Virus record (IMG/VR): IMGVR_UViG_3300037343_000142 | Location: 1 to 27,441 of that record | Source of the DNA: a virus | Direction: 5' to 3' (one strand) | Length of the DNA: 27,441 nt | Part shown: positions 1 through 16,715 of the stretch, piece by piece | How the letters are laid out: every line of letters begins with the position of its first letter | How positions within the stretch are numbered: position 1 is the first letter of the stretch | The notes under the pieces: generated by a model | Seen by the model: the letters and a program-made list of their open reading frames with translations, nothing else | What the model was told of the DNA's origin: nothing | Databases searched by the model: none | Translations under genes and position numbers: made by a program

Positions 1-127
1 AAAAGCTGCTGCTACTTGGCAGTATATCTACATCATAATAGCTCTTACTAAGCTCATTTTTTAGCTGCCCCTTTATGAGTTTTTGCATTTTTCTTAGTAA
101 TTGCTAAAGCCTTTTTATCCGCATCAT
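1..127. repeat. Terminal redundancy of a circular assembly (left copy)
   Basis: These 127 bases are identical to positions 27315-27441. The length equals a common maximum assembly k-mer (127), so the overlap most likely marks a closed circular or circularly permuted molecule and not a biological terminal repeat. The left copy holds the first 29 codons of the portal gene (1-88, minus strand), whose complete copy is 25360-27402. The unique genome is 27,314 bp. Confidence 0.95.
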
Positions 128-233
128 ACTTACTAGCTGCCATAATCGTAAGCCCTAGATCCGGATAGTAGTAACTAGTAAGGGCTTTATTATTGATGGG
201 CCTCATCATCTTATCGTTATAGTTTTTAAGCAT
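48..233 (-). CDS. Small hypothetical protein before the portal gene
   Basis: A 61-residue protein from ATG at 231-233 to a TAG stop at 48-50, with one TGA read as Gly two codons before the end. The second half is lysine- and alanine-rich and strongly basic (AITKKNAKTHKGAAKK). It starts five bases after the tail terminator gene stops, and its last 41 bases overlap the start of the portal gene, so the three genes look translationally linked. No family recognised. A truncated second copy is present at the right edge of the window because of the terminal redundancy. Confidence 0.6.
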
Positions 234-237
234 CTTA

Positions 238-663
238 TTAAGTTATATCTATTAAAGTTTTACATACCAGGCGTATAGTACAAATAAGCACCGGCCCAAC
301 TTCATTATCTGCCGTGGCAAATTCTCCGGGTACCGCATCTATACCCCCCGTGCATAATCATCATAGCGTATAATCTGTATCAAAAGCGTTTAATATACTG
401 GAAAAAGCCGCAATAATAGTATTTAACGCGGTTGCTCTATCGGTATTACTCAGCTCGTGGGCTAGTAGCAACTCAAAGTTATACGCCCTTTGGTTATATT
501 TTGTATCGATATACTCACTCGGTACGGTCGTAGGCTCAAACATAACGCAAGGGTAACCCTCTATATCCTTTTTATAATAATCATAAGCAAAAGCTAACGG
601 CTGGCCTTCACCGGTTAGCGTTTCTAGTTTTTCCAGGATCCTGGCGCGTACTTGCTCTAACAT
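238..663 (-). CDS. Putative tail terminator / tail completion protein
   Basis: 141 residues if started at the ATG at 661-663, four bases after the gp10-like gene ends. In-frame ATGs at 727-729, 733-735, 787-789 and 790-792 would lengthen it by up to 43 residues but overlap the preceding gene. Two consecutive TGA codons (358-363) are read as Gly-Gly; the stop is TAA at 238-240. The fold cues fit tail terminator or minor tail U-like proteins: an N-terminal helix, then a strand with YDYYKKDIEGYPCVMFEP, then YNQRAYNFELLL. These proteins cap the tail tube and join it to the head. Position after the gp10-like gene supports this. The start is uncertain. Confidence 0.6.
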
Positions 664-667
664 ATTG

Positions 668-1051
668 TTATAAGTCTCAGTTATAAAGGCGGTTAAGGCT
701 ACTTTTAAATCATCTAATAACTCTACCATAGGCATTATCCCTAGCCCTATCCATATAGGGGTTACCTTTAATACCTCTAGTGGTTCCATCATGTACCCAT
801 ACGGCGTACTCCCTTACGTTGGTTAATACTGCCTCGTATCACCTAGCGCTAATAGGGTACTTAGTCCTATATCCTTGGCGCAGCGCTCCAGTATCTACCG
901 GAGTCTCTTTTTTTGCCTCACGCTCTACTACTGTCATTGCAAGGCTTAAGGATCTCTTAACTACCTTAAAGTATTCGTTAACGTCTAGCTTACTTAAGGC
1001 ATCCTGGATACCCATAACCTCTAAATCCAATATTATACCTTTATCCGTCAT
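668..1051 (-). CDS. HK97 gp10-like head-tail/tail component
   Basis: 127 residues with two TGA codons read as Gly: one after the PISAR segment, and one near the C-terminus. The stop is TAA at 668-670. The central TPVDTGALRQG motif and the later YAVWVHDGTTRG...PIMDRARDNA segment match the HK97 gp10 family (VDTG...YA.yvE.Gt...pf). Stopping at the first TGA would remove the second, diagnostic half. Its ATG overlaps the TAA of the head closure gene (TAATG), giving translational coupling. The role is at the head-tail interface during siphovirus tail completion. Confidence 0.78.
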
Positions 1052-1356
1052 TAGTCTACCTTAGTTATAGATAATACCTTAACCTTAACCATACCTATAT
1101 TTTTATTAGCTATAACCTCGCTAACCTTAAAAACTTGCTCGCCAATAGTTAGCTGGTCGGTTTCTATTATATCCGCAGTACTAGGCGTAGTAAATCTATA
1201 CTCCTTACCATATCTACTAGCGCCTATATCCGCTATGTTAATTGCGTTAAGGTATCCCTTATAACTAACTCCGGATATTGCAACGTAAGCACTTTTACCG
1301 CTCACCGTGGTTAGCCTGGATACCGTGGCCGTATCTTTAAAGAGTCTAAAAGTCAT
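1051..1356 (-). CDS. Putative head closure / head-tail joining protein
   Basis: 101 residues, no internal TGA, stop TAA overlapping the next start. It is small and beta-rich, with GYLNAINIAD, Y.F.TPSTADIIETDQLTIGEQVFKVSEV and a final strand. This layout resembles phage head closure proteins (SPP1 gp16 / HK97 gp9 type), which form the ring between the adaptor and the tail. It lies between the adaptor gene (11-bp overlap) and the gp10-like gene, the expected place. The assignment is from size, strand pattern and position; sequence identity to any one family is not certain. Confidence 0.62.
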   Translation of the reverse strand: MTFRLFKDTATVSRLTTVSGKSAYVAISGVSYKGYLNAINIADIGASRYGKEYRFTTPSTADIIETDQLTIGEQVFKVSEVIANKNIGMVKVKVLSITKVD

Positions 1357-1894
1357 AGCTCATATATTTAGATAATAGGGCCTTGGTACTTAGTTGCATC
1401 TCATTTTTAGAGTATGTTAAACTAGCGCCGTCTACACTTTCCGCACTTATACCGGCCGTCATTGATTGCGTTCTAATTTCACTAATAAGCGCAAAACATG
1501 CTAACTTTAGATCCGGGGGGCAGCTATTAGCATTATACCCAGCGGTTACGTTAATCTTAATATTTCTGCGGCCCCTAGGCAACCCCATCTCTAAATAGAT
1601 AATACCGCTATCCGGATCTACGGCATAATCCGCATCCGCAAAATCTACCCGCTCCCCCTTTCATAGGTTACTATGGTTATATTGGAAACTATGCAATATG
1701 GTTACCGGGTAGGCATCTATAACTAGGCTTTTAGATCACTCACCGGAATAGTAAAAATCCTTAGCGGATACTAAGGATAATTGCCTCCCGGTTGCTTGCT
1801 CTACTATACTATCTATAGCGTTTACGTATTTGGTTAACTCCTCATCATTACCATCTATACCAAACGCCTTAAGCTCCGCTAGTGTTATAAGCAT
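1346..1894 (-). CDS. Head-tail adaptor (gp6-like connector)
   Basis: 182 residues from ATG 1892-1894 to TAG 1346-1348, with two TGA codons read as Gly (1736 and 1661). It begins with MLITLAELKAFGID, then a helix and IVEQATGRQL, then PVTILHSFQY and a DFADADYAVDPDSGIIYL stretch before a Leu/Ala-rich C-terminal helix. This is the usual pattern of gp6/YqbG-type connectors that dock below the portal and form the first neck ring. It sits just after the capsid operon and overlaps the head closure gene by 11 bp. Confidence 0.75.
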
Positions 1895-1924
1895 ATCCGT
1901 AGGGCTATAATATAAAATATGGTA

Positions 1925-2347
1925 TTAGTCCGCTTTTTTTACTTTAACCTTTGGCAACTTATCCAGCCCGTTAAGATCCAGGTAAACTTTACCAAAATTA
2001 GCAGCATTAGAGGGCGTAAGTTGGATATATGGCAGCGCATCACGGTAGTTAACTCCGTTAATGGTACCTTTTACCACCTTGTAATATTTAAACTCCTCTG
2101 CCTCGTTTTCATCCTCATTAATAGGGGCTTTAGTCTCTTCTTTAGGATCATTAGGCTCCTCTGGCTCCTTTTTAGCATCCTCTTTAGCCTCCTCTATCTT
2201 TCACTCCATCCATTCTACATTATTTTTATATCATGCCGCTATATCTTTACCGGTAGCCTCCTTATAAGCATCACGTACTAACTGCCTCTCCTCCTCTAGT
2301 TTTTGCTCATCTGCCGGAGTTAATCCATCTTTTATTACCTTTACCAT
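1925..2347 (-). CDS. Acidic hypothetical protein between capsid and adaptor
   Basis: 140 residues, ATG 2345-2347 to TAA 1925-1927, with TGA-Gly at about residues 39 and 50. The first 85 residues are a highly charged, Glu/Lys-rich helical region including EEAKEDAKKEPEEPNDPKEE; the C-terminal part is more ordered (YYKVVKGTINGVNYRDALPYI). Short acidic proteins often follow the major capsid gene in HK97-type modules, but I do not recognise the family. Upstream is AT-rich (TATACTATAATAACT before the ATG), which could hold a -10 box, and there is no Shine-Dalgarno sequence. Confidence 0.7.
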
Positions 2348-2437
2348 AGTTATTATAGTATAATGTTAAAATGGCTATCCATAGCCCGGCGCGTGTCCGC
2401 CCGGCCATAGATAGAGTATTTTAGCATTAAGCCAGGC

Positions 2438-3592
2438 TTAAGCTGCTGCCGTTACAATCTTACCAAACGCAGCCCCGTATATCATACGACCAGCCACCCT
2501 AGATACAATCTTTAGGCTTTGTATATCTTTTGCAAAGTTATCATCTACGTAACCAGTTTCAGCGGTTACCGCCTTACGGTCTCACATAGCGTAATATTTA
2601 AGATCTCAAAAGATAATAAAATCCGTAGCCGCCGTATCTGCTTGCCCAAAAGTATCAGTAATCTCTACTTCATACCCCATAAGCACGTATTTATTCGGAG
2701 CCGTTAGATCTCTAAGTAGTAGCGGCTGCCCTGTACTGTCCTTAAGTTTTTGGATTGCTCCAAAAGCTAACTGGCTCATTACAAATACTGGCTTTTTACC
2801 TCTCTTATATCTAATAAGCACGCTATTAACTAGATCCACTATTTTTTCAAAAGTGATAGAGGCAATAGATACAGTAGCAAGAGTAGTTACGTTAACATCC
2901 CCGTTTTCTACGATACCCTCAAAATTAGTACCCGTACCATCTCAAATAAATACTTGCGTATCCTCTAAAATAGCAAAAGCATCACCCGCTAGCTCTATTA
3001 CTAGATCAAATACATCTTTATTTGTTGCATTATCATCTAATAGCTCAGCTCGCGCGTGTACCAATACTGCAAATTTTCTAGCAGTAAGAGTAAGCGTTTC
3101 AAAAGTAGGATTACTAGGCGTAATAGCCACTCATCCACCTACAATATATGCCGTTACGGATCCCGTAAGGCTAGGTATAGATTTTACGTTTGCACTCATA
3201 GGGATGATCCTACATAGTCTACGCGCAATACCTCATTTCTCTACCTCCATCATAAGAGTACGATAGAATTCAATAGGTAGTAACGCCCCACCCGTAGCAT
3301 CTACGGTATTAGTTAGGGTTTTCTTACCATTTTCATCTACACTATCCGCATCCATAAGCCCCTTAAAGATCTTACCCGCTACCTCTATTTGCTCAGCTTT
3401 AGCGGCATCTTTACCGCTATCAGTAAACTTAGACTCGGATAAAATCTTAGTAAATTGTTCCTGGATAGCTTTAAAGTTATCGGATAGCTCTAGTGTTTTT
3501 GCCTCTACGGCATCCGCTACTACTCCCGGTGCCGTCTCTTGTACGGCGTTTTTAATTGCTCCCTTAAGGGCCTCTAGTTGTTTTTCATTCAT
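2438..3592 (-). CDS. HK97-fold major capsid protein
   Basis: 384 residues, ATG 3590-3592 to TAA 2438-2440. Residues 1-100 form a charged helical region typical of the scaffolding delta domain removed by the prohead protease. The mature part begins near DATGGALLPIEF (about 98-109). Five TGA codons encode Gly at residues 120, 154, 217, 329 and 337. Three lie in conserved motifs: VGGGVAITPSNPTF (154), FIGDGTG (217) and FIIFGDLKYY (329). These positions are the best evidence that TGA is Gly: the same proteins in other phages carry WVGEGA, F.GDGTG and FGDF. The protein builds the icosahedral shell and follows the protease gene by 26 bp. Confidence 0.95.
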
Positions 3593-3618
3593 TTGTATTA
3601 AAAAAAGTAATTAAAAGG

Positions 3619-4404
3619 TTAATTTAACTTTAGATCACGTAAAGCCTCAGCACTTAAGCGGTTAACCTCTTGTAAGGTTTCCTTACTTATATGCTCTTTA
3701 CTCTTAGCTTTGCCATCAGCCGTATTTTTAATATTTTTAACATCATCTATCACGCCATCTATTTTACTGCCCATTTGGTTAATCATTTCTATAATAGTAT
3801 CTAATCACTTAGCAACCTCCGGAGCATCACCATTACCCTTAGCGCTATCGTTACCTATAAGGTACGTAGCGTAATAAATAGTATTAGCATCCTTAGTAGC
3901 ATCTCATATAGCAGTTTCCATATAAGACTTAACGCCCTTGCCCATTCCTAACGCCTCCGGGTTAGCCGGCACCGTTACAAAAGAGTACTCTAGTAACTCC
4001 GCCTCCTCTATAATATAGCGGTTATCCGGGTTACGCTTAATAACTTTAAATCATACGCTAACGGCGTTAATAAATCATCACTCGTATAGCTTACGTATCT
4101 GCTGCCCCATAGGGTTAGCATCTGCCGGAGCAAAAACCCCGGTGCTTATAACTTGGCCATCTTTAACGCTTAGCCCAGTTGCCTTAGCTACGGGCAGATC
4201 ATAATATCTATGCCCTCGCAATACTACGGGGTTTTTCATAAAGTTTTCAAAATCCCAACCGCCTAGGCGTATAATCTCACCATCTCTATCTACTACCTCG
4301 CTAGTTATTACTACCTTAAAGGTACCGCTATCTTTATCATCCGCTTTAGTATCAAATACCTTAGTATTAATAATTGCGTTAGCTATTGCCTCTTGTAAGT
4401 TCAT
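3619..4404 (-). CDS. HK97-type prohead serine protease
   Basis: 261 residues, ATG 4402-4404 to TAA 3619-3621. The catalytic His is in VLRGHRYYDLPV (H65) and the nucleophile is Ser116 in NAVSVGFK. Glycines 109-110 (EGGF) and 118 (SVGF) are TGA-coded; SVGF is nearly invariant in this family. Next comes ELLEYSFVTVPANPEAL, the usual motif after the active Ser. The C-terminal third (residues 185-261) is an Asp/Lys-rich coiled-coil-like tail. The protein cleaves the capsid delta domain during head maturation. There is no Shine-Dalgarno; the start is preceded by TTTTTTTGATCCA. Confidence 0.93.
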
Positions 4405-4435
4405 TGGATCAAAAAAATAATATAAATAATAGCGG

Positions 4436-5407
4436 TTACGCTACGTAATCACTAACGGTATTAATTAGCTCTACGTTAAGTAACTCCGCATCATCTCTAC
4501 TATATAGCCCCTTAAAGTTAAGCGTTTGCTTAACTATCTCATCATTTGCGCGGTTAGGGTTCCAATCTTTAAATTTAAGCCTTGCTAAGTTAAGCTCTAA
4601 CGTGGGGTTTTCGGAGGTTCCTATAGTTACGTTAGGATCTATAACTTGTACGCGCATTGCTCTAGCGGTACCGTTAAACTCATAATCCTTAAAGGTTTCC
4701 GCATCATATAGCATTGTAATAGTTCACTCCGCTACAAAAAACGTATTATATATATCATCCGGCTCCGGATCTCATATTACATAATCCATCTCCAAATTTT
4801 TAGAAATTGTTAAGCTCATACTTTTTATACTAGCAGCATTAGCAGCATCTAACCCGGCTAGGTTTTCCGCAAGGTATACTTTTGCGTGTCTTGCTAGTAA
4901 TCAGTAATCCGCGCTATAACTTACGGTATGAGTTGCCGCCGCTCATTTCTTACCCATAAAGGTAGTAGCTATAGCCACCTCGTTACCGTTCTCTATTGTT
5001 ATGGTTACGCTTTGGATCATACATAAGGCGTAACTTTTAGCTAAGTTAGGATCCTTTAACCCTATCGTAAGTGACTGGTGCGTATTGCTAGCAGCTAGGG
5101 CAAATATATGCTTAAAAGCTCCACCGGTTGCGCTGGTAGTTTTTCCGCCTAGTAAATTAAGGAATAGGTAACCCATACCATTAATATAAGCCCTATGCTC
5201 TATGTTTCACTCGCTCCACTCTTTAACTTTATCCATATCGGAGGCATCCGTAATATTACCGGAGCTGGCCCCGTCTACTATATGCTCCGCCTTGTCTTGT
5301 ACTGTTAACGTGTTTTTAGGTTGTCGGTGCTGGATTGCCGCAGCCGTTCACCTCGTAGCCTCTATACCAAATCATACGTTAACTAACCTACCTATATGCT
5401 TGGCCAT
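4436..5407 (-). CDS. Major tail tube protein
   Basis: 323 residues, ATG 5405-5407 to TAA 4436-4438, with several TGA-Gly codons (for example at 5372, 5348, 5207, 4943, 4901, 4772 and 4724). The N-terminus has GRLVNVGFGIEATRGTAA, typical of tube proteins starting with G.E...GT. The central part has HIFALAASNTHQSLTIGL, then SVTITIENGNEVAIATTFMGKK, and late on AEGTITMLYD; these are tube-type beta strands. It should polymerise into the tail tube around the tape measure. It lies between terminase and the prohead protease, where the portal gene normally is, and not next to the chaperones G/GT. Confidence 0.75.
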
Positions 5408-5478
5408 AATGAAAAAATAATATAAGTAAATGGATATACTTATACTATAAGGTTATATATTAACTATTTCTACGCGTT

Positions 5479-5697
5479 TTATTCACTACTTGCCAACTTG
5501 GCTTGTATAATACAATCTATGGCCCTTGCTTTCCACCTTACTCGGGTGCGGTCGCTTTCAATATAAAAGCGGCTCATAAGCTCGGGCTTAGTAAATTTGC
5601 CACTAACTAAGGATAGTAAAAAGTCTTGCTCCATACGGCGTAACGCCTGGAATTTATCCGGATCAATATGGTTAGGCAGCTTTATTTTATTGCTCAT
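5479..5697 (-). CDS. Small hypothetical protein, helical
   Basis: 72 residues from ATG 5695-5697 to TAA 5479-5481; a GTG two codons upstream (5701-5703) is an alternative start. It contains a helix-turn-helix-like run (LLSLVSGKFTKPELMSRFYIESDRTRV) followed by a basic segment (RWKARAIDCI), suggesting possible nucleic acid contact. The family is not recognised. It overlaps the preceding gene by 11 bp and is followed by a 71-bp AT-rich gap before the tail tube gene, which may carry a promoter. Confidence 0.6.
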   Translation of the reverse strand: MSNKIKLPNHIDPDKFQALRRMEQDFLLSLVSGKFTKPELMSRFYIESDRTRVRWKARAIDCIIQAKLASSE

Positions 5698-6037
5698 TTT
5701 CACGGGTTAACTGGTTAAGTATAGATTTAATAACTCACGGCCCAAAATCACCGCATATAATACGGCTACCGTTAGTAGCTACCTCATCACCGTTAAGCAA
5801 GTGATAGGCTTGCTTAGGCGTAATAGCGATACGTACTATATCGGTGCTTTTAAGTCACGTTACCAACCTAACTAGGTAACTCCATATAAATTTAGGTATA
5901 TATTTAGGTTTCGGCCTGGTATAATGCTTAGCAAAATAACTAGGCGTAAGGCTTTCCATATACTCATTTGCCATAACTCTAGCCTCACGGCGCGCCGCTT
6001 GCTTTGCCTTTTTAAGTAGTTGGTTAGTACTTGCCAT
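5687..6037 (-). CDS. Hypothetical protein downstream of terminase
   Basis: 116 residues, ATG 6035-6037 to TAA 5687-5689, with two TGA-Gly codons (5855 and one in GDFGPG). The N-terminal half is very basic and helical (LLKKAKQAARREARVMANEYMES), then KPKYIPKFIWSYLVRLVTG, then a beta-like segment with TPKQAYHLLNGDEV. It overlaps both neighbours by 11-14 bp. No family recognised. The 5' half is intact under either code; only the TGA-Gly reading gives the C-terminal half. Confidence 0.6.
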
Positions 6038-6329
6038 TATTTAATTTGCTAGGGTATAAATCTACACTCAGTACCTCCGCTATATCTTTTTGCCCGGTAG
6101 CTTTCATACGATCTACCAGCAATACCGTTAGATCCTGTAAGCCGTCTATTATCTCTTGCTTACGGTCCAGCCTTGTACGCCAATCCTTTATATTGCCCGC
6201 ATCCTCTCGCGTTGCTATCCGCTGCGCTATATCATCATCATCATAGTTATACTGGTTAAGTTTATTAATTAGGGCGTTATACTTAATATTTACCTCCCCC
6301 ATTTCGTTAAGCGGTTGCTCCCTCAGCAT
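6024..6329 (-). CDS. Hypothetical coiled-coil-like protein
   Basis: 101 residues, ATG 6327-6329 to TAA 6024-6026, no internal TGA. It is largely helical: YNALINKLNQYNYDDDDIAQRIA, then RTRLDRKQEIIDGLQDLTVLLVDRMKATGQKDIAEVL. It overlaps the preceding gene by 23 bp and the following one by 14 bp, typical of tightly packed phage genes. It lies between terminase and the tail tube. I cannot assign a function. Confidence 0.6.
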   Translation of the reverse strand: MLREQPLNEMGEVNIKYNALINKLNQYNYDDDDIAQRIATREDAGNIKDWRTRLDRKQEIIDGLQDLTVLLVDRMKATGQKDIAEVLSVDLYPSKLNNGKY

Positions 6330-6528
6330 TTCTATTATATGTAATATGAGTAAAAGTTATTATATATCCGTTAACTCCTTTGCTGCCTAAATAATTAAAC
6401 TCTCTTTTTGTATTTATGCTACACGTGTCCACGTTAAACTTAGTAAGTAAGTTTTTAAATAATCAATTTTTAACCGCATCTAATCACCCGATAGCCTTAA
6501 CTAACTCATCTGCTATAAATACTTGCAT
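6307..6528 (-). CDS. Small hypothetical protein after terminase
   Basis: 73 residues, ATG 6526-6528 to TAA 6307-6309, with two TGA-Gly codons in its first 25 residues (AIGGLDAVKNGLF). The C-terminal half is beta-like (VNGYIITFTHITYN). The start is preceded by GATCCT directly before ATG, as in the endolysin gene (16660) and similar to the protease gene (4404). It begins 19 bp after the terminase stop. Family unknown. Confidence 0.55.
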
Positions 6529-6547
6529 AGGATCATAATATAATTAA

Positions 6548-7867
6548 TTAAAATATATCTGCCTCTTGCTCCTCTTGCGCTACTGGCTCCTCCTCTTGGC
6601 TGGTATCTCATACGTATACATCCGGTGCGGAGGTATATGATCACAGGGCATACGTTGCGCCGTATCTCGCCCCGTCTATGGCATGGTTATACTTATCTAT
6701 GGGCTTATTTGTAGGCTTTCCATCCTTGTCTACTTTCCGCTTATATTTGCGCATCTCACTTATTAGCCCTACGCTCCTGGCGGTTACTTCTATCTTATAA
6801 CGCTTAAGCAAATCTATACCGTTATTAATACTATCCGGACCTTTAGCGGCACCCTTTATATCCCGGCCAACATCATAAAGCTCCTGGATACTTTTAGGCT
6901 CGCTATTATCCGCTATAATCTCACTATACGCCCTACTTAATCACGCCTCCAGCATCCTACGATCTATACTATTACTGGATCATAGCTTAGCGCCCTCCTC
7001 AGTATAAATATCTATATTAGTTAATCCTGTCTCATATATAGGGCAATCCATAATAAGCGCCTTGTTATGCTTATATATTCTAACTAGGGCCGTAGGATCA
7101 TTAGTAAATCCAAAATCTAACCCATCAATTAACCGCGCAGCATCTTTAGGGATCTCCGGTATAACGCTCCAGTTAGTAAATACCGTACCAGTAACCCTAC
7201 CGTATTGCCCTAGGCCGTATACTTTCCGTAACTCTAAATCTATTTGCTTAGTATACTCTATCTCCTCTACTTGCGCCCTACTTAAAAACGCGTTATCCTT
7301 GTAAGTACTTACTAAAACTATTACATCCTTTTTAATCTGCGCCCTCTTTTGCTCTAATTCAGTATTAACCCATATATCCGGATCACTAGGGTTAAGATCA
7401 ATTAACGCCACTACTGCGGTACGTACTAACAGCTGGTAAAACTCCTTAGTATATGCCAGCTCGTTACCCTCGTTACAATACAATATATCACGCTTTCACC
7501 CTCTTAACTTTTGCTCATCATCCGCACCGATAAACTCTATTAACCTCCCTTTATATCGATAGGTACGATCCGTTTTATTTTCTTTAATCTTAACTTTAGG
7601 GGCAAGCGTTGCCCGGATCTCTAAGAAGTCACGTTGCACGGTACCCTTAAGGGTTACCTTGTATTTACGTACTATGCTACATACTCATTTTTTTATTACT
7701 CTTTTACCCAGCTTACCCGTAACCAACCGTATAAAAAGTAGCTGCATTATACTATACGTTTTGCTAGATCTCGTGCCTCATCTATTAATTATAATCTTAA
7801 TAGTTTTATCACTAACGGCATTATAGTTAGCATCAAATACCGGCGTGGCCTTAAGGTTTAATTTCAT
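6548..7867 (-). CDS. terL: Terminase large subunit
   Basis: 439 residues, ATG 7865-7867 (overlapping the small-subunit TAA as TAATG) to TAA 6548-6550. The ATPase P-loop is at residues 28-38 (NRGGTRSSKTY), with G30 coded by TGA. Walker B-like DILYCNEGNEL lies at about 127-137, preceded by TGA-coded Gly in LRGGKRD. The nuclease domain starts with GLDFGFTNDPTAL (D251 as a metal ligand), continues with the GSSNSID segment and ends with YNHAIDGARYG, as in PBSX/P22-type large terminases. The C-terminal tail is Glu/Gln-rich. It packages DNA into proheads using ATP and cuts the concatemer. Seven TGA codons fall inside; no piece ending at TGA would be functional. Confidence 0.95.
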
Positions 7868-8412
7868 TAGTTATACTGGTTATCATCTACGGTACTATTT
7901 ACTATAGTTACCTCTACCTCAGTTACGGTATCATCATCCTCCATATCTTGCTTAGTCGTGCTTTTAATTTCCACCTCTTGTACTCTTGTATTTAAAGCCC
8001 ATTGCTTAGTAAATTTACGCTCAAATATCCAGGCCCACTTTTGCCATTTATCCGCTATTATTAAATTACCTAATAGTAATAACTTCTCATCCCTTACCTT
8101 TTTATCTAACAACCGCCAAAATTGCTCTATAGCTATCTTAGTCTCCTCCGGCATATCATCTAAATCCTCTTGCGTTATATTCCTTATACGGTTCTTATAG
8201 CGCTCATAGCTACGCTTACTAATAGCATAGTTACCCATACCGTTACTATATAATCTATAATTAGTTTCGTTTACTATATCCGTATCAGTTCGGGCCGTAA
8301 TTACTGCCGGAGTCTCTAAAACAACTTTAGCCTGGTTAATCCGGGTATGGTTAAGCGCTACCGGCCTACCGGCATTGCTCTTTTTTTCCGTACCGTCTAA
8401 GTTCTTCTCCAT
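7867..8412 (-). CDS. terS: Putative terminase small subunit
   Basis: 181 residues, ATG 8410-8412 to TAA 7867-7869, no internal TGA. It starts with a basic segment (KKSNAGRPVALN), common in small terminases, and includes a helix-turn-helix-like NYAISKRSYERYKNRIR, then a helical core with KWQKWAWIFERKFTKQWALNT, and an acidic tail. It directly precedes and overlaps the large subunit, the standard arrangement. It would recognise the packaging site and load the large subunit. The family call rests on context and the RP-HTH layout. Confidence 0.65.
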   Translation of the reverse strand: MEKNLDGTEKKSNAGRPVALNHTRINQAKVVLETPAVITARTDTDIVNETNYRLYSNGMGNYAISKRSYERYKNRIRNITQEDLDDMPEETKIAIEQFWRLLDKKVRDEKLLLLGNLIIADKWQKWAWIFERKFTKQWALNTRVQEVEIKSTTKQDMEDDDTVTEVEVTIVNSTVDDNQYN

Positions 8413-8424
8413 AAAGTCAATATA

Positions 8425-8709
8425 CTAACTAAGCAAAAGCGTAAAAGCGGTAATAATCCATAATATTACGGATCATCCACGTATCACCTCCCGGCATCTA
8501 CTATAAAAGGCGTATTTACTCACTAATACTAACTCATAGCCTGGATCCAGTATAATATTATGCTCACCCTCTAACTCCATCCCCTTTTTTTCTTGAAAAT
8601 CGTAGGATTGATTTAAAAATAACATTAACTCGGTTAGATCATCATGCTTAAGTATTATCTTACCATTAACCTTAGTAGTTACCTCAGTTATAACCTTACT
8701 TTTTTCCAT
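8425..8709 (-). CDS. Small protein with hydrophobic C-terminus
   Basis: 94 residues, ATG 8707-8709 to TAG 8425-8427, with one TGA-Gly at 8473 followed by a hydrophobic tail (SVILWIITAFTLLLS) that could be a single C-terminal membrane anchor. The first 78 residues are soluble and mixed (TELMLFLNQSYDFQEKKG). It overlaps the previous gene by 14 bp and precedes terS. Function unknown. The membrane segment is seen only when TGA is read as Gly. Confidence 0.6.
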
Positions 8710-9001
8710 TAGATCTAATTATATGAGTTAAAGAGTCTATACCGTAAGCCTCTACGTACCTATTAAATAGATCCGTTAGTATTACATCCAATAACCGGTT
8801 AGGCACGTCATTAATAACCTCCTTAACCGTTTTTTTTCTTAGCTTACTACTATCCCGCCCGCTGGTTATTAAGCCAGCGTATATTGTGGGGGTAATCCTA
8901 CTACTACTTAGTATTTCCTTAACTTGCTCCGGGGTTAGCTTTCTAGGCTTTAATCCCCGTGCGTTAATAAGGGCTTTAATAGATCTATTTACCATCTCCA
9001 T
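8696..9001 (-). CDS. Hypothetical helical protein
   Basis: 101 residues from the ATG at 8999-9001; ATGs at 9014-9016 and 8993-8995 are alternatives, the last leaving the least overlap with the gene before. The stop is TAA 8696-8698; no TGA. It is basic and helical: INARGLKPRKLTPEQVKEILSS, then GRDSSKLRKKTVKEVIND, then LTDLFNRYVEAYG. This could be DNA-associated, but no family is recognised. It lies in the run of small genes ahead of the terminase. Confidence 0.6.
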   Translation of the reverse strand: MEMVNRSIKALINARGLKPRKLTPEQVKEILSSSRITPTIYAGLITSGRDSSKLRKKTVKEVINDVPNRLLDVILTDLFNRYVEAYGIDSLTHIIRSNGKK

Positions 9002-9389
9002 TAATAGTACTATCATCTATTAAATCACCCTTAGCCTTACCGGATAGATCTACTTTATCACCATCCTCCCAAAAGTTAACGTAATCATCACCGCTATATA
9101 ATACCATACCATCCGGTATAGTAATTTTATCCCGGCCTATAGTTTCTATTACCGCCTCTATCCATAGATCCTTAATTTTAAGCTGCGCGTTAAGTTCGTG
9201 TATAACCCTTATATTACGCTCAGCTCATACCGTAGCCTCCATAAGTATTAACTTAAGCGCATCTAAGGCCTCTACGCTCCTGGTTACCATTCCAATTAGT
9301 TCTTTTTTATTTTTTGACTGTAAAAGCTCCTCATCTATAACCTCTACTCTTGCCTCTACTAAAGGCTTTTTTTTGTCCTCCATAAGCAT
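8985..9389 (-). CDS. Hypothetical acidic protein
   Basis: 134 residues, ATG 9387-9389 (a second ATG lies two codons later) to TAG 8985-8987, one TGA-Gly in EATVGAERNI. The first 85 residues look like a long coiled helix (VEARVEVIDEELLQSKNKKELIGMV in part, then LNAQLKIKDLWIEAVI); the C-terminal segment is more beta-like (KITIPDGMVLYSGDDYVNFW) with an acidic tail. No recognised family. Its end overlaps the next gene. Confidence 0.62.
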
Positions 9390-9417
9390 CTATTATATAT
9401 AAAAAAACATATACGTA

Positions 9418-9693
9418 CTATAAGTATACATCTGGCTCTTGCAATGCCATACTGGCGTTATCTGTATCACTCTTAGCAGCTGCCAGTACTTTTTTTGGTA
9501 CTTTATCCACTTTAGGTTGGTCGCTTGCGCTATCATACTCACGGATCCGCCCGCTAATAATATGATAGGTTTTATAGTCTATAACGTAACCCTCTTGCCC
9601 TCACATTACGCGGGCGTGTAAGTTACTCATATTAAGGCCGGATACTTTAGATTGTAAATACTCTAGTAGTTTATCCGTTACTACTCTTGCCAT
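9418..9693 (-). CDS. Small hypothetical protein
   Basis: 91 residues, ATG 9691-9693 to TAG 9418-9420, one TGA-Gly in ARVMGGQEGY. The N-terminal part (LLEYLQSKVSGLNMSNLHARV) is helical, then a short YVIDYKTYHIISGRIREYD strand pair, then a low-complexity Lys/Ala/Asp-rich tail. It is separated by 54 bp from the upstream gene and 28 bp from the downstream one. Function unknown. Confidence 0.6.
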
Positions 9694-9747
9694 CAGTTAG
9701 GGTATATGGTAAATCTATTAGAGTAATACTTAATTATATACTATTTG

Positions 9748-10101
9748 TTAGTTTAAGTTATTAACCTCATCCCATACCATACTATAGTACTCTAAATCTA
9801 TATATACATCCTCAAAATAATCCGGCGGATATTTAAATAATACTTTGGCTCTAAAAAAATCATCTAATATACTACTAGATCTTATATTATTATTATTTTG
9901 CCTATCTATTACATCACTTATTAAATAATGTAAGATCCCCTCCCTTATAGCCCTATTAATCTGCGGCATTGTCTCATCATCCATAACCGCGTTACTACTA
10001 TGCAAATCCTCTAGGCTATCCCTTATATATTTATTAATACGTTTAGCGGTAGTTTGCATACAGTATAAGTTAATTGTCTCTTTAAGTGTTAATTTACTCA
10101 T
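9748..10101 (-). CDS. Hypothetical protein, Asn/Asp-rich
   Basis: 117 residues, ATG 10099-10101 to TAA 9748-9750, no TGA. Helical throughout (LKETINLYCMQTTAKRINKYI; INRAIREGILHYLISDVID), with a polar NNNN run and an acidic aromatic C-terminus (PDYFEDVYIDLEYYSMVWDEV). Its start overlaps the end of the preceding gene by 8 bp, the same spacing seen at several junctions here. No family recognised. Confidence 0.6.
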   Translation of the reverse strand: MSKLTLKETINLYCMQTTAKRINKYIRDSLEDLHSSNAVMDDETMPQINRAIREGILHYLISDVIDRQNNNNIRSSSILDDFFRAKVLFKYPPDYFEDVYIDLEYYSMVWDEVNNLN

Positions 10102-10378
10102 TATTAGTAGGGATATAAATAACGTAAGGGCCTTTACAGTACGGGTATAGAATTACCTGTCATTGCAAGGCTCAGTTAATAGCAGCTATTTTTTTATAGT
10201 CTCACCAGGATACTATTACTGTATTACCGTTAAAGATATTAGTACCTATATCCTCCTTAGTAATCTTAGCCCAGGCATCTATCTTACCCATAGTCCATAC
10301 TTTCACCTTATCCAGGATCCGGGCCGGTACGCTTTCCGGTTTCTTAGACTGTATTAGCTGCGCTTGTTTTGCCATCAT
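10094..10378 (-). CDS. Hypothetical protein
   Basis: 94 residues from the first of two tandem ATGs (10376-10378, 10373-10375) to TAA 10094-10096. Three TGA codons read as Gly lie in the C-terminal half (VSWGDYKK, INGALQGQVI), so under the standard code only a fragment would remain. The N-terminus is basic (KQAQLIQSKKPESVPARIL), followed by a compact Trp-containing domain ending YPYCKGPYVIYIPTNNE. Function unknown. Confidence 0.58.
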
Positions 10379-10763
10379 TGCTATCTAATTTTTTATAAAT
10401 GGCCTCTATATTACTTATCATCCTATTTTCATAGTACTCCTCAAAAGTCATATTATGCTTAAGCTCAGCGTTAGCGTTATATAATAAGTATAGCGCCTTA
10501 CGTTGCTTACTACTAAGGGATCCCTTACCGGTTTCCGCCATTTTCTTTTTAAGTGACTCACCAACTAGGCGGGGGATCTCATTAATTTTATCCTCACCTA
10601 CTACCACCCGTACCATTTTATTGCGGTATGCCAGTATATCGGCTATCTCGCCCCCTTGCATCTCTTGCGTAGTAAATTGTATCTTAATAGATCCATCTAC
10701 TAACGTCTCTACCTTACCCATCTGCCCTAGAAAATTTACTATATTATTTTCTACCTCTATCAT
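10344..10763 (-). CDS. Hypothetical protein of the replication region
   Basis: 139 residues, ATG 10761-10763 to TAA 10344-10346, no TGA. The N-terminal half is beta-rich (VETLVDGSIKIQFTTQEMQGG; NKMVRVVVGEDKINEIP); the C-terminal half is helical and basic (LSSKQRKALYLLYNANAELKH; FEEYYENRMISNIEAIYKKLD). It overlaps both neighbours (20 and 35 bp). No recognised family; a DNA-metabolism role would be a guess from position only. Confidence 0.6.
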   Translation of the reverse strand: MIEVENNIVNFLGQMGKVETLVDGSIKIQFTTQEMQGGEIADILAYRNKMVRVVVGEDKINEIPRLVGESLKKKMAETGKGSLSSKQRKALYLLYNANAELKHNMTFEEYYENRMISNIEAIYKKLDSNDGKTSAANTV

Positions 10764-10956
10764 TCTTTTTAGGTTTCTTAGGTGATAAATAACCGTTTTT
10801 TCTATTATACTTTTTAAGTTCTTTAATTAGGCACTCGTTACGCTCATCACTCTTAAAGCATATAGCGGATATTTCCAGTAACTCTATTACCTCTATGATC
10901 CTACCCTTTTTTGTTTTCCTGGTCTTTATTGGTACGTATCCTATATCGTAAGTCAT
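10744..10956 (-). CDS. Small basic hypothetical protein
   Basis: 70 residues, ATG 10954-10956 to TAA 10744-10746, no TGA. Very lysine- and arginine-rich, especially at the end (RKNGYLSPKKPKKNDRGRK), with a short central IIEVIELLEISAICF hydrophobic run. The high basic charge suggests binding to nucleic acid (inference). It overlaps the HNH-like gene by 16 bp and the next gene by 20 bp. Confidence 0.58.
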   Translation of the reverse strand: MTYDIGYVPIKTRKTKKGRIIEVIELLEISAICFKSDERNECLIKELKKYNRKNGYLSPKKPKKNDRGRK

Positions 10957-11303
10957 TTGGGCTTATTAAGCTGCTTAAGGTAATTAAAAGTTATTCTATT
11001 GCCCGCTAGTAACTCCTCCTCTATTTCCCCAAACTTTCACGCTCTAAGATCATCAATTACGCCGTGTAGTTGCATAGTACTTACCATAATTATATTATAA
11101 CTATCATACTTATAGTTAGGATATAATCACTTAGGCAGTACGTGGGCAAAGTAATAACTTAAAGGCTCCACTAACTCTTTACCGGTTACCTCGCACTTTT
11201 TCCCGCGCTCTAGTCGGATCTCAAAAAACATATCACGTTGGGGCCTGTCTCACTCCTTGGGATCACTAGGGTTAATTTTATACTTTTTATAATGCTTAAC
11301 CAT
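10941..11303 (-). CDS. HNH-like nuclease-family protein
   Basis: 120 residues, ATG 11301-11303 to TAG 10941-10943, with four TGA-Gly codons. The centre reads KKCEVTGKELVEPLSYYFAHVLPKG, then LYPNYKYDSYNIIMVSTMQLHG. This matches the beta-beta-alpha layout C-x-x-TGK...AH...N...H of HNH-type proteins encoded by many phages, with the His in FAH, Asn in YNI and His in QLH as candidate metal/catalytic residues. Only one Cys of a usual zinc-binding set is present, so the structural zinc site may be lost. In phages such proteins can aid packaging or recombination; here the role is open. Confidence 0.55.
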
Positions 11304-11308
11304 CTCTA

Positions 11309-11515
11309 TTAATCATCTACATAAATGCACTCCACCATATCCCAGTAATCCGCGTGGCTACCTTTAGGCTCATAGTGATCCTTTCGCCTTTTTAATAGGT
11401 ACTTACGCCGCCTAGCTTGCCGCTCAGTTTCGGTATACTTCTTTATATCCATCATACAAGAGGTAGGTAGCTTTTGCGTACCATCCCAGCCTTTAATTAT
11501 ATTTATAGCGCTCAT
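11309..11515 (-). CDS. Small hypothetical protein, Arg/Lys-rich
   Basis: 68 residues, ATG 11513-11515 to TAA 11309-11311, no TGA. A strongly basic centre (KYTETERQARRRKYLLKRRKD) is followed by an acidic aromatic tail (ADYWDMVECIYVDD). It ends five bases before the HNH-like gene starts. Family unknown. Confidence 0.58.
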   Translation of the reverse strand: MSAINIIKGWDGTQKLPTSCMMDIKKYTETERQARRRKYLLKRRKDHYEPKGSHADYWDMVECIYVDD

Positions 11516-11544
11516 AGTTAAGTTCTAATAAGTTTTAAAAGGTT

Positions 11545-11862
11545 TTAAGAGGCTTTAATTTCCTTGCTTTTAACTTGTAATCATAACTCCGCTACTAACC
11601 TTAAATCCTCCATCATTTCTTTACCCAAATACTCCAGTAAAGTAATTACTAGGTCCATTTTATCGTGGTCGGTTAAGTTGTCCTTTACTCACTCAGCTAG
11701 TACACTACTTACGGCCTTTAGCAAATGCTTAATTAACTCGCACCCTTTAACTCCTTTATTTTCTAAGGCTATAGATACATCTACTCCCCCGCAGTTGCAA
11801 GTACTATCTTTACACTCGTTACCCTCCATTAGTGTAATATAAATGCTTGCGGATTTTTTCAT
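11545..11862 (-). CDS. Hypothetical protein with N-terminal Cys cluster
   Basis: 105 residues, ATG 11860-11862 to TAA 11545-11547, two TGA-Gly codons (LAEGVKD, AELGLQV). Four cysteines lie within residues 17-41 (ECKDSTCNCGG...KGC), a possible metal site. The rest is helical (LIKHLLKAVSSVLAEGV; MDLVITLLEYLGKEMMEDL). It follows a 36-bp AT-rich gap after a small membrane-protein gene. The early-region location suggests a host-takeover or replication accessory role, but this is not shown by sequence. Confidence 0.6.
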
Positions 11863-11898
11863 AATTATATATTTAACAAATTTAAAACAATTATTTAA

Positions 11899-12060
11899 TT
11901 AGGCTATTATCAGTATTAGCAATAGTATTGCTCACGTTATAGCGTACTCACTTAGCAGCTCACGGGCTACCTTACAAATAATAGTTTTAACCGGCATACT
12001 CCTCATACTTTTATTATGTATTACGGCTTTATTAATCTCTTTATGGCTGCTATATATCAT
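11899..12060 (-). CDS. Small membrane-anchored peptide
   Basis: 53 residues, ATG 12058-12060 overlapping the TAA of the upstream annealing-protein gene (TAATG), stop TAA 11899-11901. The soluble part (SHKEINKAVIHNKSMRSMPVK) is followed, after a TGA-coded Gly, by a very hydrophobic C-terminus (AILLLILIIA) that could anchor it in the membrane. The tight stop-start overlap supports translation. Function unknown. Confidence 0.5.
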
Positions 12061-12806
12061 TACTTAGATACGTTAGGAGCTAAAATTTTCATAGCCTCTA
12101 TCAGTACCTTACCTTGCAATCCTTTACAGTTCTCTTTTGCTATCCCTTGCTCCTCTTGCGTTAAATACGCCCCATAGTTCTTTTTACTGTAAGCCGCTAC
12201 CGCTGCGGTTATTTGCTGCCTGCTAAAGTGGCTTAAAAACTTTGTCTCTATTTTCTTACCGGCCACCTCACCGCCTCACGTAGGGCGCTTAGCATCTTTA
12301 TCACCTAGGTAAATATCTGCGCTAAATCATAACATACTTAACGCTTTACTTATAGTATTCGTTTGGATCTTTTTATATAGATCCCCTATTACTTTTTTCT
12401 CGCCAGTATTCCTTTTTTGCCGTCTACCGTTATCATCCTGGTAACTTTCTTTAACATCCTCTAAAGCATCCATACTATTATATATGGGGAACTCAGCATT
12501 ATTAACTCTCTCGTACAATCCCTTATCATCACCCGAACACATAACATCTTTTTTAAGCCTTACAGTATCTGCGGGATAAAAAAAAGTAGCCTTAAGAACA
12601 CATAAGCCATTGTCTATATTAATATCCAGGGATTTAAACCCTCGAGTACTACCATAAGGCCCCCGCATTTCCGTAGCTACTTTAATACTATAGTAAGCAT
12701 CTATATTAGTATACTTATACTTTCATAACGTAACCTCTTTAGTATACGCCATATTAGTATTTTCTACCTTATTCCATAACTCTAAATTTTTAGTTGTATC
12801 TGCCAT
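12060..12806 (-). CDS. Putative Rad52/Sak-like single-strand annealing protein
   Basis: 248 residues, ATG 12804-12806 to TAA 12060-12062, with TGA-Gly at 12723, 12327 and 12276. An N-terminal beta domain (EVTLGKYKYTNIDAYYSIKVATEMRG in part; KSLDINIDNGLCVLKATFFYP) leads to a helix with LYKKIQTNTISKALSMLGFSADIYLG, similar to the conserved (t)KAls.LGF.aDvylG segment of phage annealing/recombination proteins of the Sak/ERF/Rad52-like group. The C-terminal part (residues 180-248) is basic and helical. It would pair single strands during phage recombination or replication. A promoter candidate (12835-12864) and the TGCTTTTATCA element (12821-12831) lie just upstream, after a terminator. The family call is tentative. 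Confidence 0.5.
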
Positions 12807-12820
12807 TAATATATAATATA

Positions 12821-12831
12821 TGATAAAAGCA
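12821..12831 (-). promoter_or_regulatory. TGCTTTTATCA element, 14 nt before the annealing-protein start
   Basis: On the minus strand the 11-mer TGCTTTTATCA lies exactly 14 nt upstream of the ATG. The same 11-mer occurs at 13893-13903 (again 14 nt before an ATG), at 15726-15736, and inverted at 15601-15611, all outside genes. It lies three bases downstream of the -10 candidate, about where transcription would start, so it could be an operator or a 5'-leader element. Confidence 0.5.
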
Positions 12832-12834
12832 TCT

Positions 12835-12864
12835 ATTATATAACCATCTATAACCACGTTACAA
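12835..12864 (-). promoter_or_regulatory. Candidate promoter for the recombination/late region
   Basis: On the minus strand TTGTAA (12859-12864) and TATAAT (12835-12840) are separated by 18 nt. Directly upstream lies the inverted repeat GCCAACTTGGC (12865-12875), a possible operator. The site sits between a terminator and the annealing-protein gene, where a promoter is needed. Confidence 0.5.
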
Positions 12865-12917
12865 GCCAACTTGGCATTTATGTACTACTTTACTTATAAT
12901 TATATTTATGGTATACT

Positions 12918-12942
12918 AAAAAAGCCCGGATATAATCCGAGC
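12918..12942 (-). terminator. Rho-independent terminator
   Basis: On the minus strand GCTCGGAT-TAT-ATCCGGGC forms an 8-bp stem (one G-U) with a tight loop, followed by TTTTTT. It ends the early transcript running from the initiator gene through 12966. Confidence 0.8.
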
Positions 12943-12965
12943 GGGGCGTAGGTAAAGCCTACTAA

Positions 12966-13082
12966 TTACTTACAATAGCGCCGTATTAGCTGCCTCAGCA
13001 TCTGCCTTAGCGTTCTCCTTTTGTTTCGCTTAATACGTTGCCTTTTGGTTACACGTGCCATACTATAATGGTTTTGGTTCAT
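12966..13082 (-). CDS. 38-residue arginine/lysine-rich peptide
   Basis: ATG 13080-13082 to TAA 12966-12968, no TGA. After MNQNHYSMARV, nearly half of the residues are Arg or Lys (TKRQRIKRNKRRTLRQMLRQ in the middle), giving an extreme positive charge similar to nucleic-acid-binding arginine-rich peptides. It starts 19 bp after the upstream gene ends and is followed within 24 bp by the terminator. An antiterminator- or RNA-binding-like role is only a guess. Short size leaves doubt that it is translated. Confidence 0.45.
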   Translation of the reverse strand: MNQNHYSMARVTKRQRIKRNKRRTLRQMLRQLIRRYCK

Positions 13083-13100
13083 TATTTGTATAGCCTTATA

Positions 13101-13775
13101 TTAATCACTTACAATAGCAGCCTGTAATACTTGCTGCTTTTTTAGGCTGGCAATTTCATTATCTAATCATCCCATACGATCTTTAGCAGCATTAATATCA
13201 TCATTATAACTAGCTATCTTAGTTTTATGGTTTTCCAGGGCAGCGGCCTTAATGCCTCTTATATCCTCCATATATTCTAACTCACCTATACGCTTGCCCT
13301 CTATAGCGGTTATTTGGTTTTGTATTAACTCATATTTACTAACTTGCTCCACCTCTATAGTTTCCGGGGCCGGATCACTTGCATTAGTAGGGGATAGCAA
13401 GGCCGCTAAAAATACGCACGCTATTATAATTAATCCGCTCAGTATATAAGGTACGTATCTTTTAAGCCTGGCGGTTAGTATTCACTTATTAAAATCATCT
13501 CTTACATCATCCTCATCAAATATATCCGGGATATTAACATCATCACCGTTAGCCTTTTGCATACCCACTAAATCACGTTGCATAGTCCTACCCTCGCCCA
13601 CATACATTTTAACCAGCTCTATAGTGTCGGCAAAACTCTTACCCTCTATTAGTTCGGCTGGCATAGTGATTTTAACACTCTTACCAAATCTACCGTTAGT
13701 TAGTTGCTCTTGTACCTGGAATTTATTCCCCTCTAAGTTAGTAACCTTGTAATCTTTTACGTTTACGTTTGCCAT
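13101..13775 (-). CDS. Membrane protein with coiled-coil tail
   Basis: 224 residues, ATG 13773-13775 to TAA 13101-13103; TGA-Gly at 13482 and 13167. Residues 1-97 form a soluble domain (KFQVQEQLTNGRFGKSVKIT; SFADTIELVKMYVGEG; acidic DIFDEDDVRDDF). Residues 108-127 are a transmembrane helix (YILSGLIIIACVFLAALL). Residues 135-224 are a coiled coil (VSKYELIQNQITAIEGKRI; NDDINAAKDRMGGLDNEIAS). One TM with a long coiled coil recalls spanin- or membrane-remodelling proteins, but the gene lies in the early region, so a role in replication at the membrane or in exclusion is equally possible. Function unknown. Confidence 0.65.
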
Positions 13776-13782
13776 TTTGTTT

Positions 13783-13878
13783 TTATTTAAGAAGTATAAA
13801 AAGCATCATAGGGATCAGCATACTTATAATAGTAATAGCAAAAGCTATTAGCAAATCAGTTAGCAAGCATTTAACCAT
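13783..13878 (-). CDS. 31-residue single-pass membrane peptide
   Basis: ATG 13876-13878 to TAA 13783-13785, seven bases before the next gene. MVKC-LLTDLLIAFAITIISMLIPMM-LFILLK is almost wholly hydrophobic. The TGCTTTTATCA element lies 14 nt upstream, as for the annealing-protein gene, which supports it as a translated gene. Small single-pass peptides in phages may be holins or accessory inhibitors; nothing more can be said. Confidence 0.42.
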   Translation of the reverse strand: MVKCLLTDLLIAFAITIISMLIPMMLFILLK

Positions 13879-14051
13879 CTTAATATTGGTAGTGATAAAA
13901 GCACTCCTCTACCCTACTGCCTTGGCTTGTTTTACCGCGGCGGTGCCGGCGTTAGCGGCGGGCGAGTAACTAGAGTATAGGGGAGGGGTGCCGTTACGTC
14001 AAATTATTATGATATACTTAGGGTATCACTACTACCGGTATGCTTTTTATA
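13879..14051. other. Noncoding gap with TGCTTTTATCA element and GC-rich block
   Basis: This 173-bp gap holds no convincing gene. It carries TGCTTTTATCA on the minus strand at 13893-13903 and a GC-rich block at about 13935-13965 (CCGCGGCGGTGCCGGC on the plus strand and onwards), very unlike the AT-rich surroundings. The block contains the palindromes CCGCGG and GCCGGC but no T-run follows, so it is not a normal terminator. Confidence 0.5.
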
Positions 14052-14318
14052 CTACTTACCCAGGCGCGTTACTGTATTCCGGGCCTTATTAAACTCAGTA
14101 GCTACGTGCTTAATTGCCTTATCAAATTCCATAGGCTCCGGGGTATCAAATATAACTACGACTCAGCTTGCGTAATAAGCCGACCGTAAGCCGTTAGACT
14201 TTACAATATTCAATATAAATTTTTTACCCTTATACTCTAGGGATCCCGGCAGTACATCTAATAGAGTCTTAACGTCTAAGTACTTAACTAGATCCCGGTT
14301 AATTTTCTTATTACTCAT
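14052..14318 (-). CDS. Hypothetical early protein
   Basis: 88 residues, ATG 14316-14318 to TAG 14052-14054, one TGA-Gly in YYASGVVVIFD. Mixed alpha/beta: DLVKYLDVKTLLDVLPGSLEY, then YKGKKFILNIVKSNGL, YYASGVVVIFDTPEPM, and a final basic helix (DKAIKHVATEFNKARN). It is the third gene after the initiator and overlaps the gene before it by 8 bp. Family not recognised. Confidence 0.6.
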
Positions 14319-15556: not shown

Positions 15557-15579
15557 ATAGCCTAAATTATTTAGACAAT

Positions 15580-15658
15580 AAAAAAAACGCCCTTGTCGGG
15601 TGCTTTTATCACTATACATATAGGCATATACCTTAATGAAGTAATCCCCAGGGCGTTT
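15580..15658 (-). terminator. Long stem-loop with T-run (terminator or regulatory RNA)
   Basis: On the minus strand ACGCCCT (15650-15656) pairs with AGGGCGT (15587-15593), followed by eight T (15580-15587 on the plus strand is A-rich). The loop of about 56 nt contains TGATAAAAGCA (15601-15611), the inverted copy of the intergenic 11-mer. It separates the endolysin gene from the initiator gene. The large loop is unusual for a simple terminator. Confidence 0.6.
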
Positions 15659-16660: not shown

Positions 16661-16679
16661 AGGATCAAAAAAAGAAACT

Positions 16680-16707: not shown

Positions 16708-16715
16708 CTATGTAA

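What the first reader, a model, noticed from the sequence alone, without database searches (positions are those of the whole stretch)
2438..7867. TGA is read as glycine throughout: a phage using genetic code 25
In-frame TGA falls on glycines that are nearly invariant in known families: prohead protease SVGF (Gly118) and EGGF, capsid FIGDGTG (217) and FIIFGD (329), terminase NRGGT P-loop (30). TGG is kept for Trp (for example KWQKWAWIF in the small terminase), so TGA is not Trp. TAA and TAG both end genes. Code 25 is known from Gracilibacteria and Absconditabacteria, so the host is probably one of these barely cultured CPR bacteria. Phages for them are poorly described.
Basis: partly seen in the sequence, partly recalled or inferred. 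Interest (0 to 1): 0.9.

Follow-up and report, generated by a model that had tools for sequence, protein, structure and literature searches.

The report
Phage with three reassigned codons
This small tailed phage reads the stop codon TGA as glycine and also reads two arginine codons, CGA and CGG, as tryptophan, which is the unusual genetic code published for the barely cultured bacteria called Absconditabacteria, so the code itself points to its host.

Summary
The window is a circular 27.3-kb tailed-phage genome with all recognised genes on the minus strand. TGA occurs in frame about 140 times, in 30 of 43 genes, and TAA/TAG end every gene. An HMM test built only from standard-code homologues assigns TGA to glycine (+19.2 nats; all other residues negative).

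"Genetic code 25" is incomplete. The same masked test assigns CGG (+18.4 nats) and CGA (+8.9) to tryptophan, not arginine. In related recoded IMG/VR contigs, CGA/CGG swap with TGG at conserved tryptophans and rarely with other arginine codons. TGA=Gly plus CGA=CGG=Trp is the code published for Absconditabacteria; for some Gracilibacteria only CGG=Trp is suggested. Neither the window nor the 13 relative loci scanned encode a tRNA, so the host presumably supplies the decoding tRNAs.

TGA-recoded phages of these bacteria are already published. I found no report of a phage with CGA/CGG=Trp, so this is a new variant of a known kind. The host assignment rests on the code alone: I could not reach any Absconditabacteria genome with these tools, so no spacer or prophage link was tested.

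The parts
1..27441 (-). Whole circular phage genome, about 27.3 kb; all recognised genes on the minus strand, TGA in frame throughout
   Evidence: 127-bp exact terminal overlap; gene and codon tables
2438..3592 (-). Major capsid protein, HK97 type; TGA=Gly at codon 217 (2942-2944) and codon 329 (2606-2608)
   Evidence: Phage_capsid PF05065 E=4.8e-45; phrog_10; Gly columns
3619..4404 (-). Prohead protease; TGA=Gly at codons 110 (4075-4077) and 118 (4051-4053)
   Evidence: Peptidase_S78 PF04586 E=1.1e-5; phrog_80; Gly top in standard-code HMM
4436..5407 (-). Tail tube protein; seven TGA codons; CGA at codon 28 (5324-5326) sits in a Trp column
   Evidence: Phage_tube_2 PF18906 E=1.7e-20; CGA28 Trp +5.9 bits
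6548..7867 (-). Terminase large subunit; TGA30 (7778-7780) in the P-loop; CGG214 (7226-7228) and CGG377 (6737-6739) in Trp columns
   Evidence: Terminase_3 and Terminase_3C; TGA30 G 38/38, CGG214 W 37/62, CGG377 W 59/66
7867..8412 (-). Probable terminase small subunit, no TGA
   Evidence: phrog_4102 E=7e-4
25360..27402 (-). Portal protein fused to MuF-like domain; CGA216, CGA334, CGG599, CGA610 read as Trp
   Evidence: Phage_portal PF04860 E=3.7e-52, Phage_Mu_F PF04233; codon swaps with TGG in relatives
23068..24825 (-). Probable tape-measure protein; CGG328, CGA339, CGG383 in aromatic/Trp columns
   Evidence: homology to L065 and recoded relatives; HMM columns
22229..23083 (-). Distal tail (Dit-like) protein
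   Evidence: phrog_202 E=9.8e-5
19774..22236 (-). Tail protein; conserved C-terminal part weakly related to prophage tail endopeptidase, with a TGA-rich insert (20557-21996) carrying a Laminin_G_3 lectin-like domain
   Evidence: Prophage_tail PF06605 E=0.0018, below cut-off; Laminin_G_3 PF13385 E=1.4e-6; TGA 36 of 62 Gly codons in the insert
18693..19766 (-). Tail fibre-like protein
   Evidence: phrog_8469 E=1.9e-7

Best explanation
A tailed phage of an Absconditabacteria host, translated entirely by host machinery with three reassigned codons: TGA=Gly, CGA=Trp, CGG=Trp. Shown here: the codon meanings, by alignment to standard-code homologues and by codon swaps among recoded relatives; and the absence of detectable phage tRNAs. 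Inferred: a host tRNA-Gly(UCA) and Trp-charged tRNAs for CGA/CGG do the decoding, RF2 is absent or does not act on UGA, and the host is therefore an Absconditabacterium. The phage does not appear to use recoding as a switch, because TGA takes about the same share of Gly codons in all the larger genes except one with an acquired-looking insert.
For: HMM inference from standard-code homologues only, with TGA, CGA and CGG masked as X: TGA to G +19.2 nats (n=34, runner-up C -2.0); CGG to W +18.4 (n=10); CGA to W +8.9 (n=9); TGG to W +21.5; CGT and AGA to R +17.5 and +16.1. 53 of 62 codons came out at their standard meaning; apart from the three masked codons, those that did not scored at most 3.1 nats. 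Window against the first nine recoded relative loci: TGG/CGR swaps 26, CGR against other Arg codons 1, other-Arg against other-Arg 260, TGA/GGN swaps 559. Among eight recoded relatives: CGR/TGG 344, CGR/other-Arg 42, other-Arg/TGG 3. L079, a standard-code Patescibacteria prophage-like region, has TGG at portal 599 and 610 where the window has CGG and CGA. Pfam scores rise with CGR=W instead of R: portal 172.3 to 177.9 bits, MuF 49.2 to 51.9, terminase 50.5 to 51.9. No tRNA in the window or in the 13 relative loci scanned. Absconditabacteria are published with CGA+CGG=Trp and TGA=Gly (PMC8629427). TGA share is uniform among the larger genes once the insert-bearing gene is left out, p=0.79.
Against: The host is inferred from the code only: no spacer, no prophage in an Absconditabacteria genome. 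CGA rests on nine columns in the standard-code test, although relatives add swaps. ARAGORN can miss odd tRNAs. Some Gracilibacteria may read CGG as Trp (PMC8629427). The swap counts are not independent, because relatives are 81-99% alike, and 42 CGR/other-Arg pairings among relatives are unexplained beyond likely misalignment or spurious ORFs.
Confidence: 0.87

Rival explanations
1. Plain genetic code 25: TGA=Gly, with CGA and CGG still Arg, in a Gracilibacteria host.
For: TGA=Gly is very well supported; plain code 25 is the published code of many Gracilibacteria.
Against: No conserved Arg column in the terminase uses CGA or CGG, while two of its four Trp columns use CGG; CGR swaps with TGG 26 times and with other Arg codons once; Trp content would be 0.53% instead of 1.2% (from counts).
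Confidence: 0.04
2. Code with TGA=Gly and CGG=Trp but CGA=Arg, in one of the Gracilibacteria predicted to read CGG as Trp.
For: CGG evidence is stronger than CGA evidence; some Gracilibacteria are predicted to have CGG=Trp (PMC8629427).
Against: CGA is assigned to Trp by standard-code homologues (+8.9 nats), with Trp columns at tail tube 28 and portal 610; portal CGA216 and CGA334 swap with TGG; relatives swap CGA/TGG 214 times against CGA/other-Arg 25.
Confidence: 0.05
3. A timing-type recoded phage in a standard-code host that switches code during infection, as described for TAG/TGA-recoded gut phages.
For: Such phages exist (background in PMC10746230).
Against: No suppressor tRNA found; TGA share does not differ among the larger genes apart from the insert-bearing one; two sense codons are reassigned as well, which a stop-codon suppressor does not explain.
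Confidence: 0.02
4. TGA=Trp (code 4).
For: TGA to Trp is a common reassignment in bacteria.
Against: Trp is negative at nearly all TGA columns while Gly totals +19.2 nats; window TGA aligns to TGG in relatives once.
Confidence: 0.005

Closest known systems
Absconditabacteria genetic code (Shulgina and Eddy 2021, PMC8629427)
   Same: TGA=Gly and CGA=CGG=Trp; the phage's Trp codon use (TGG 53, CGG 43, CGA 23 per 10,000) resembles the one Absconditabacteria genome in which CGA and CGG approach TGG (TGG 35, CGG 24, CGA 30)
   Different: Described there for bacterial genomes; the phages reported in that paper were AGG=Met phages linked to Bacilli. CGG exceeds CGA here
TGA-recoded phages and prophages of Absconditabacteria and Gracilibacteria (Liu et al. 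2023, PMC10746230)
   Same: Phages with dense in-frame TGA read as Gly
   Different: Only codes 11 and 25 were compared; CGA and CGG are not mentioned in the main text. Whether this record is in their tables could not be checked
RSA-ATP1, Absconditicoccaceae tailed phage (Bouderka et al. 2026, PMC13059738)
   Same: Circular tailed phage with TGA=Gly
   Different: 39 kb, encodes four tRNAs including tRNA-Gly(TCA); none was found in the window. CGA/CGG not mentioned in the main text. Sequence not compared
IMG/VR contigs behind L069-L077 and L080-L086 (3300021400_001077, 3300032038_000465 and others)
   Same: Same order of the main head and tail genes where checked, same three reassignments, no tRNA in the loci scanned; portal 37-38% identical over the alignment
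   Different: Lower GC (0.29-0.35), TGA used for a larger share of Gly; the terminase of those checked did not match the window's
L079, prophage-like region in Patescibacteria MAG UBA926
   Same: Six related genes including portal, capsid and tape measure
   Different: Standard code; about 25% identical portal

Membership tests
Genetic code 25 (SR1/Gracilibacteria) | TGA read as Gly | tested here: met
   +19.2 nats for Gly from standard-code homologues
Genetic code 25 (SR1/Gracilibacteria) | All other codons standard, CGA and CGG = Arg | tested here: not met
   CGG and CGA assigned to Trp; swaps with TGG, not with other Arg codons
Absconditabacteria code (TGA=Gly, CGA=CGG=Trp) | TGA=Gly | tested here: met
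Absconditabacteria code (TGA=Gly, CGA=CGG=Trp) | CGG=Trp | tested here: met
   +18.4 nats, n=10; terminase 214 and 377
Absconditabacteria code (TGA=Gly, CGA=CGG=Trp) | CGA=Trp | tested here: met
   +8.9 nats, n=9; portal 216, 334, 610
Absconditabacteria code (TGA=Gly, CGA=CGG=Trp) | Decoding tRNAs supplied by the host | not testable with these tools
   No phage tRNA found; no host genome reached
Phage of Absconditabacteria | CRISPR spacer match or prophage in such a genome | not testable with these tools
   No code-25 genome was recognised among 380 Patescibacteria genomes with a TGA-containing EF-Tu/IF2 motif; the one genome-contig scan found two standard-code MAGs
HK97-type tailed phage (Caudoviricetes) | Terminase, portal, protease, HK97 capsid, tail genes | tested here: met

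The most novel reading that the evidence does not exclude
This phage lineage entered a recoded host from standard-code ancestors and is still adapting to its code. Outside one gene only 18% of Gly codons are TGA, and the terminase is closest to standard-code phages, while a lectin-like tail insert with 58% TGA was taken ready-made from a heavily recoded genome (host or phage). The genome would then be a layered record of a virus adapting to a host's changed code.
Probability: 0.3. Interest if true: 0.7.

Novelty: new variant of a known kind. Interest (0 to 1): 0.55.

Why it matters
Gene callers that treat such phages as code 25 write Arg at every Trp encoded by CGA or CGG: 57 positions in this genome, more than half of its Trp codons. 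The extra reassignment offers a sequence-only test that could separate Absconditabacteria phages from most Gracilibacteria phages where spacers are lacking. It is independent viral support for the CGA/CGG=Trp reassignment, which was proposed from rare codons in a few genomes. It also indicates that viruses can follow a host through sense-codon as well as stop-codon changes, which bears on whether code changes protect against viruses.

Tried and rejected
TGA=Trp, plain code 25 and suppressor-tRNA switching were tested and rejected (see rivals). A capsid search of IMG/VR found nothing, and the lectin-like insert had no relatives in IMG/VR, phage records or solved structures by sequence. Reaching an Absconditabacteria host failed: the class of UBA926 gave only UBA926 itself, rpoB over 380 Patescibacteria genomes showed no TGA-interrupted gene among the listed matches, and a motif with TGA at an EF-Tu/IF2 glycine hit none of them. 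The sample therefore seems to lack code-25 genomes, and the absence of a host match carries no weight. The paper search for CGG=Trp in phages of this group gave only PMC8629427. The 127-bp terminal repeat was considered as a biological feature and set aside as a probable assembly overlap.

Full report
OBSERVATION. The window is an IMG/VR virus record of 27,441 bases with a 127-bp exact terminal overlap, so it is a circular genome of about 27.3 kb. Read without TGA as stop, 43 full minus-strand genes cover 93% of it. They hold 140 in-frame TGA codons spread over 30 genes (141 with one ORF cut by the record's end), and all end in TAA or TAG. ARAGORN finds no tRNA.

WHAT TGA MEANS. I masked TGA, CGA and CGG as X, built HMMs only from homologues on standard-code contigs, and summed log-odds for each amino acid over the columns aligned to each codon, in the manner of Codetta. 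TGA gives Gly at +19.2 nats over 34 columns; every other residue is negative. As a control, 53 of 62 codons came out at their standard meaning, and apart from the three masked codons the ones that did not had scores of at most 3.1 nats. Terminase TGA30, in the ATP-binding loop, is Gly in 38 of 38 relatives.

THE SECOND REASSIGNMENT. The same test assigns CGG to Trp (+18.4 nats, 10 columns) and CGA to Trp (+8.9, 9 columns), while CGT and AGA come out as Arg. In the terminase, of four columns where standard-code relatives mostly have Trp, the window uses TGG at two and CGG at two (214: W 37 of 62; 377: W 59 of 66), and none of the five conserved Arg columns uses CGA or CGG. A portal search found relatives L069-L077, and a profile search added L080-L086; these loci open up only without TGA as stop (coding density 0.00-0.15 under code 11 against 0.80-0.99). 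Between the window and the first nine loci, TGG and CGA/CGG swap 26 times, CGA/CGG pair with another Arg codon once, and other Arg codons pair with each other 260 times. Among eight of the relatives the counts are 344, 42 and 1967. These counts are not independent, since some relatives are near-duplicates, but the direction is the same in groups that are only about 81% identical in DNA. A standard-code prophage-like region in a Patescibacteria MAG (L079) has TGG at portal positions 599 and 610, where the window has CGG and CGA. Reading CGA/CGG as Trp raises Pfam scores of portal (172.3 to 177.9 bits), MuF (49.2 to 51.9) and terminase (50.5 to 51.9). Trp then makes up 1.2% of residues instead of 0.53% (counts).

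MECHANISM. Shown: the meanings of the three codons and the lack of detectable tRNA genes in this phage and in the 13 relative loci scanned. Inferred: the host decodes UGA with tRNA-Gly(UCA) and CGA/CGG with Trp-charged tRNAs. The phage does not seem to use TGA as a timing switch: leaving out gene 19774-22236, the TGA share of Gly is uniform among the larger genes (chi-square p = 0.79). By contrast RSA-ATP1 of Absconditicoccaceae carries its own tRNA-Gly(TCA) (PMC13059738).

HOST. The three reassignments together are published only for Absconditabacteria; some Gracilibacteria are predicted to have CGG=Trp (PMC8629427). I therefore put the host in Absconditabacteria, on the code alone. The genome collection scan found only two standard-code MAGs with related portals, one labelled Patescibacteria (L079, UBA926) and one unlabelled (L078), which places the wider phage lineage at least partly in Patescibacteria. 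Attempts to reach code-25 genomes failed, so spacers and prophages of the likely hosts were not examined.

A TGA-RICH INSERT. In gene 19774-22236, residues 81-560 use TGA for 36 of 62 Gly codons, against 101 of 560 in the genome outside that gene (Fisher p = 6e-11), with GC3 0.20 against 0.36; the C-terminal part (residues 561 onward) has 1 of 20. The second half of the insert matches Laminin_G_3 (E = 1.4e-6). The simplest reading is that these lectin-like domains, perhaps for host binding, were acquired from a genome that uses TGA heavily. The boundary was chosen after looking at the data, so the p-value is flattering.

NOVELTY. Phages with TGA=Gly from these bacterial groups are known (PMC10746230, PMC13059738). 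Neither main text mentions CGA or CGG, and a full-text search for Absconditabacteria, CGG, tryptophan and phage returned only PMC8629427. A phage that follows a sense-codon reassignment has a precedent in the AGG=Met phages of PMC8629427. I therefore call it a new variant of a known kind. Subscription papers and preprints were not searched, and supplements were not available. From memory, NCBI has a later translation table for the Absconditabacteria code; this was not checked.

Noticed in passing
window 20557-21996: TGA-rich, AT-rich insert with a Laminin_G_3 domain inside a tail protein: 58% of Gly codons are TGA, against 18% outside that gene, suggesting acquisition from a heavily recoded genome.
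   Followed up: partly
window 6548-7867: The terminase large subunit is closest (43%) to standard-code viral contigs, while head and tail genes are closest to recoded contigs, none of which gave a tblastn match to this terminase: a mosaic genome or terminase replacement.
   Followed up: partly
L073 and L074 (IMGVR_UViG_3300028914_000087): One 63-kb contig holds two related portal genes about 29 kb apart, as if two phage genomes of about 30 kb lay in tandem.
   Followed up: no
L089 and L090 (from the L084 and L083 contigs): Tyrosine integrase with eight in-frame TGA codons, so some relatives are probably temperate; no match found in the window.
   Followed up: no
window 1-127 and 27315-27441: Exact 127-bp terminal repeat; the length equals a common assembler k-mer, so it is probably the overlap of a circular contig and not a packaged repeat.
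   Followed up: partly
window 15824-16660: 278-aa protein of unknown family with only a weak S-layer-homology hit at its C-terminus (E=0.52).
   Followed up: no
L078 (JAJYXM010000016.1): Related prophage-like region in an unlabelled bacterial MAG of GC 0.55 that appears to use the standard code.
   Followed up: no
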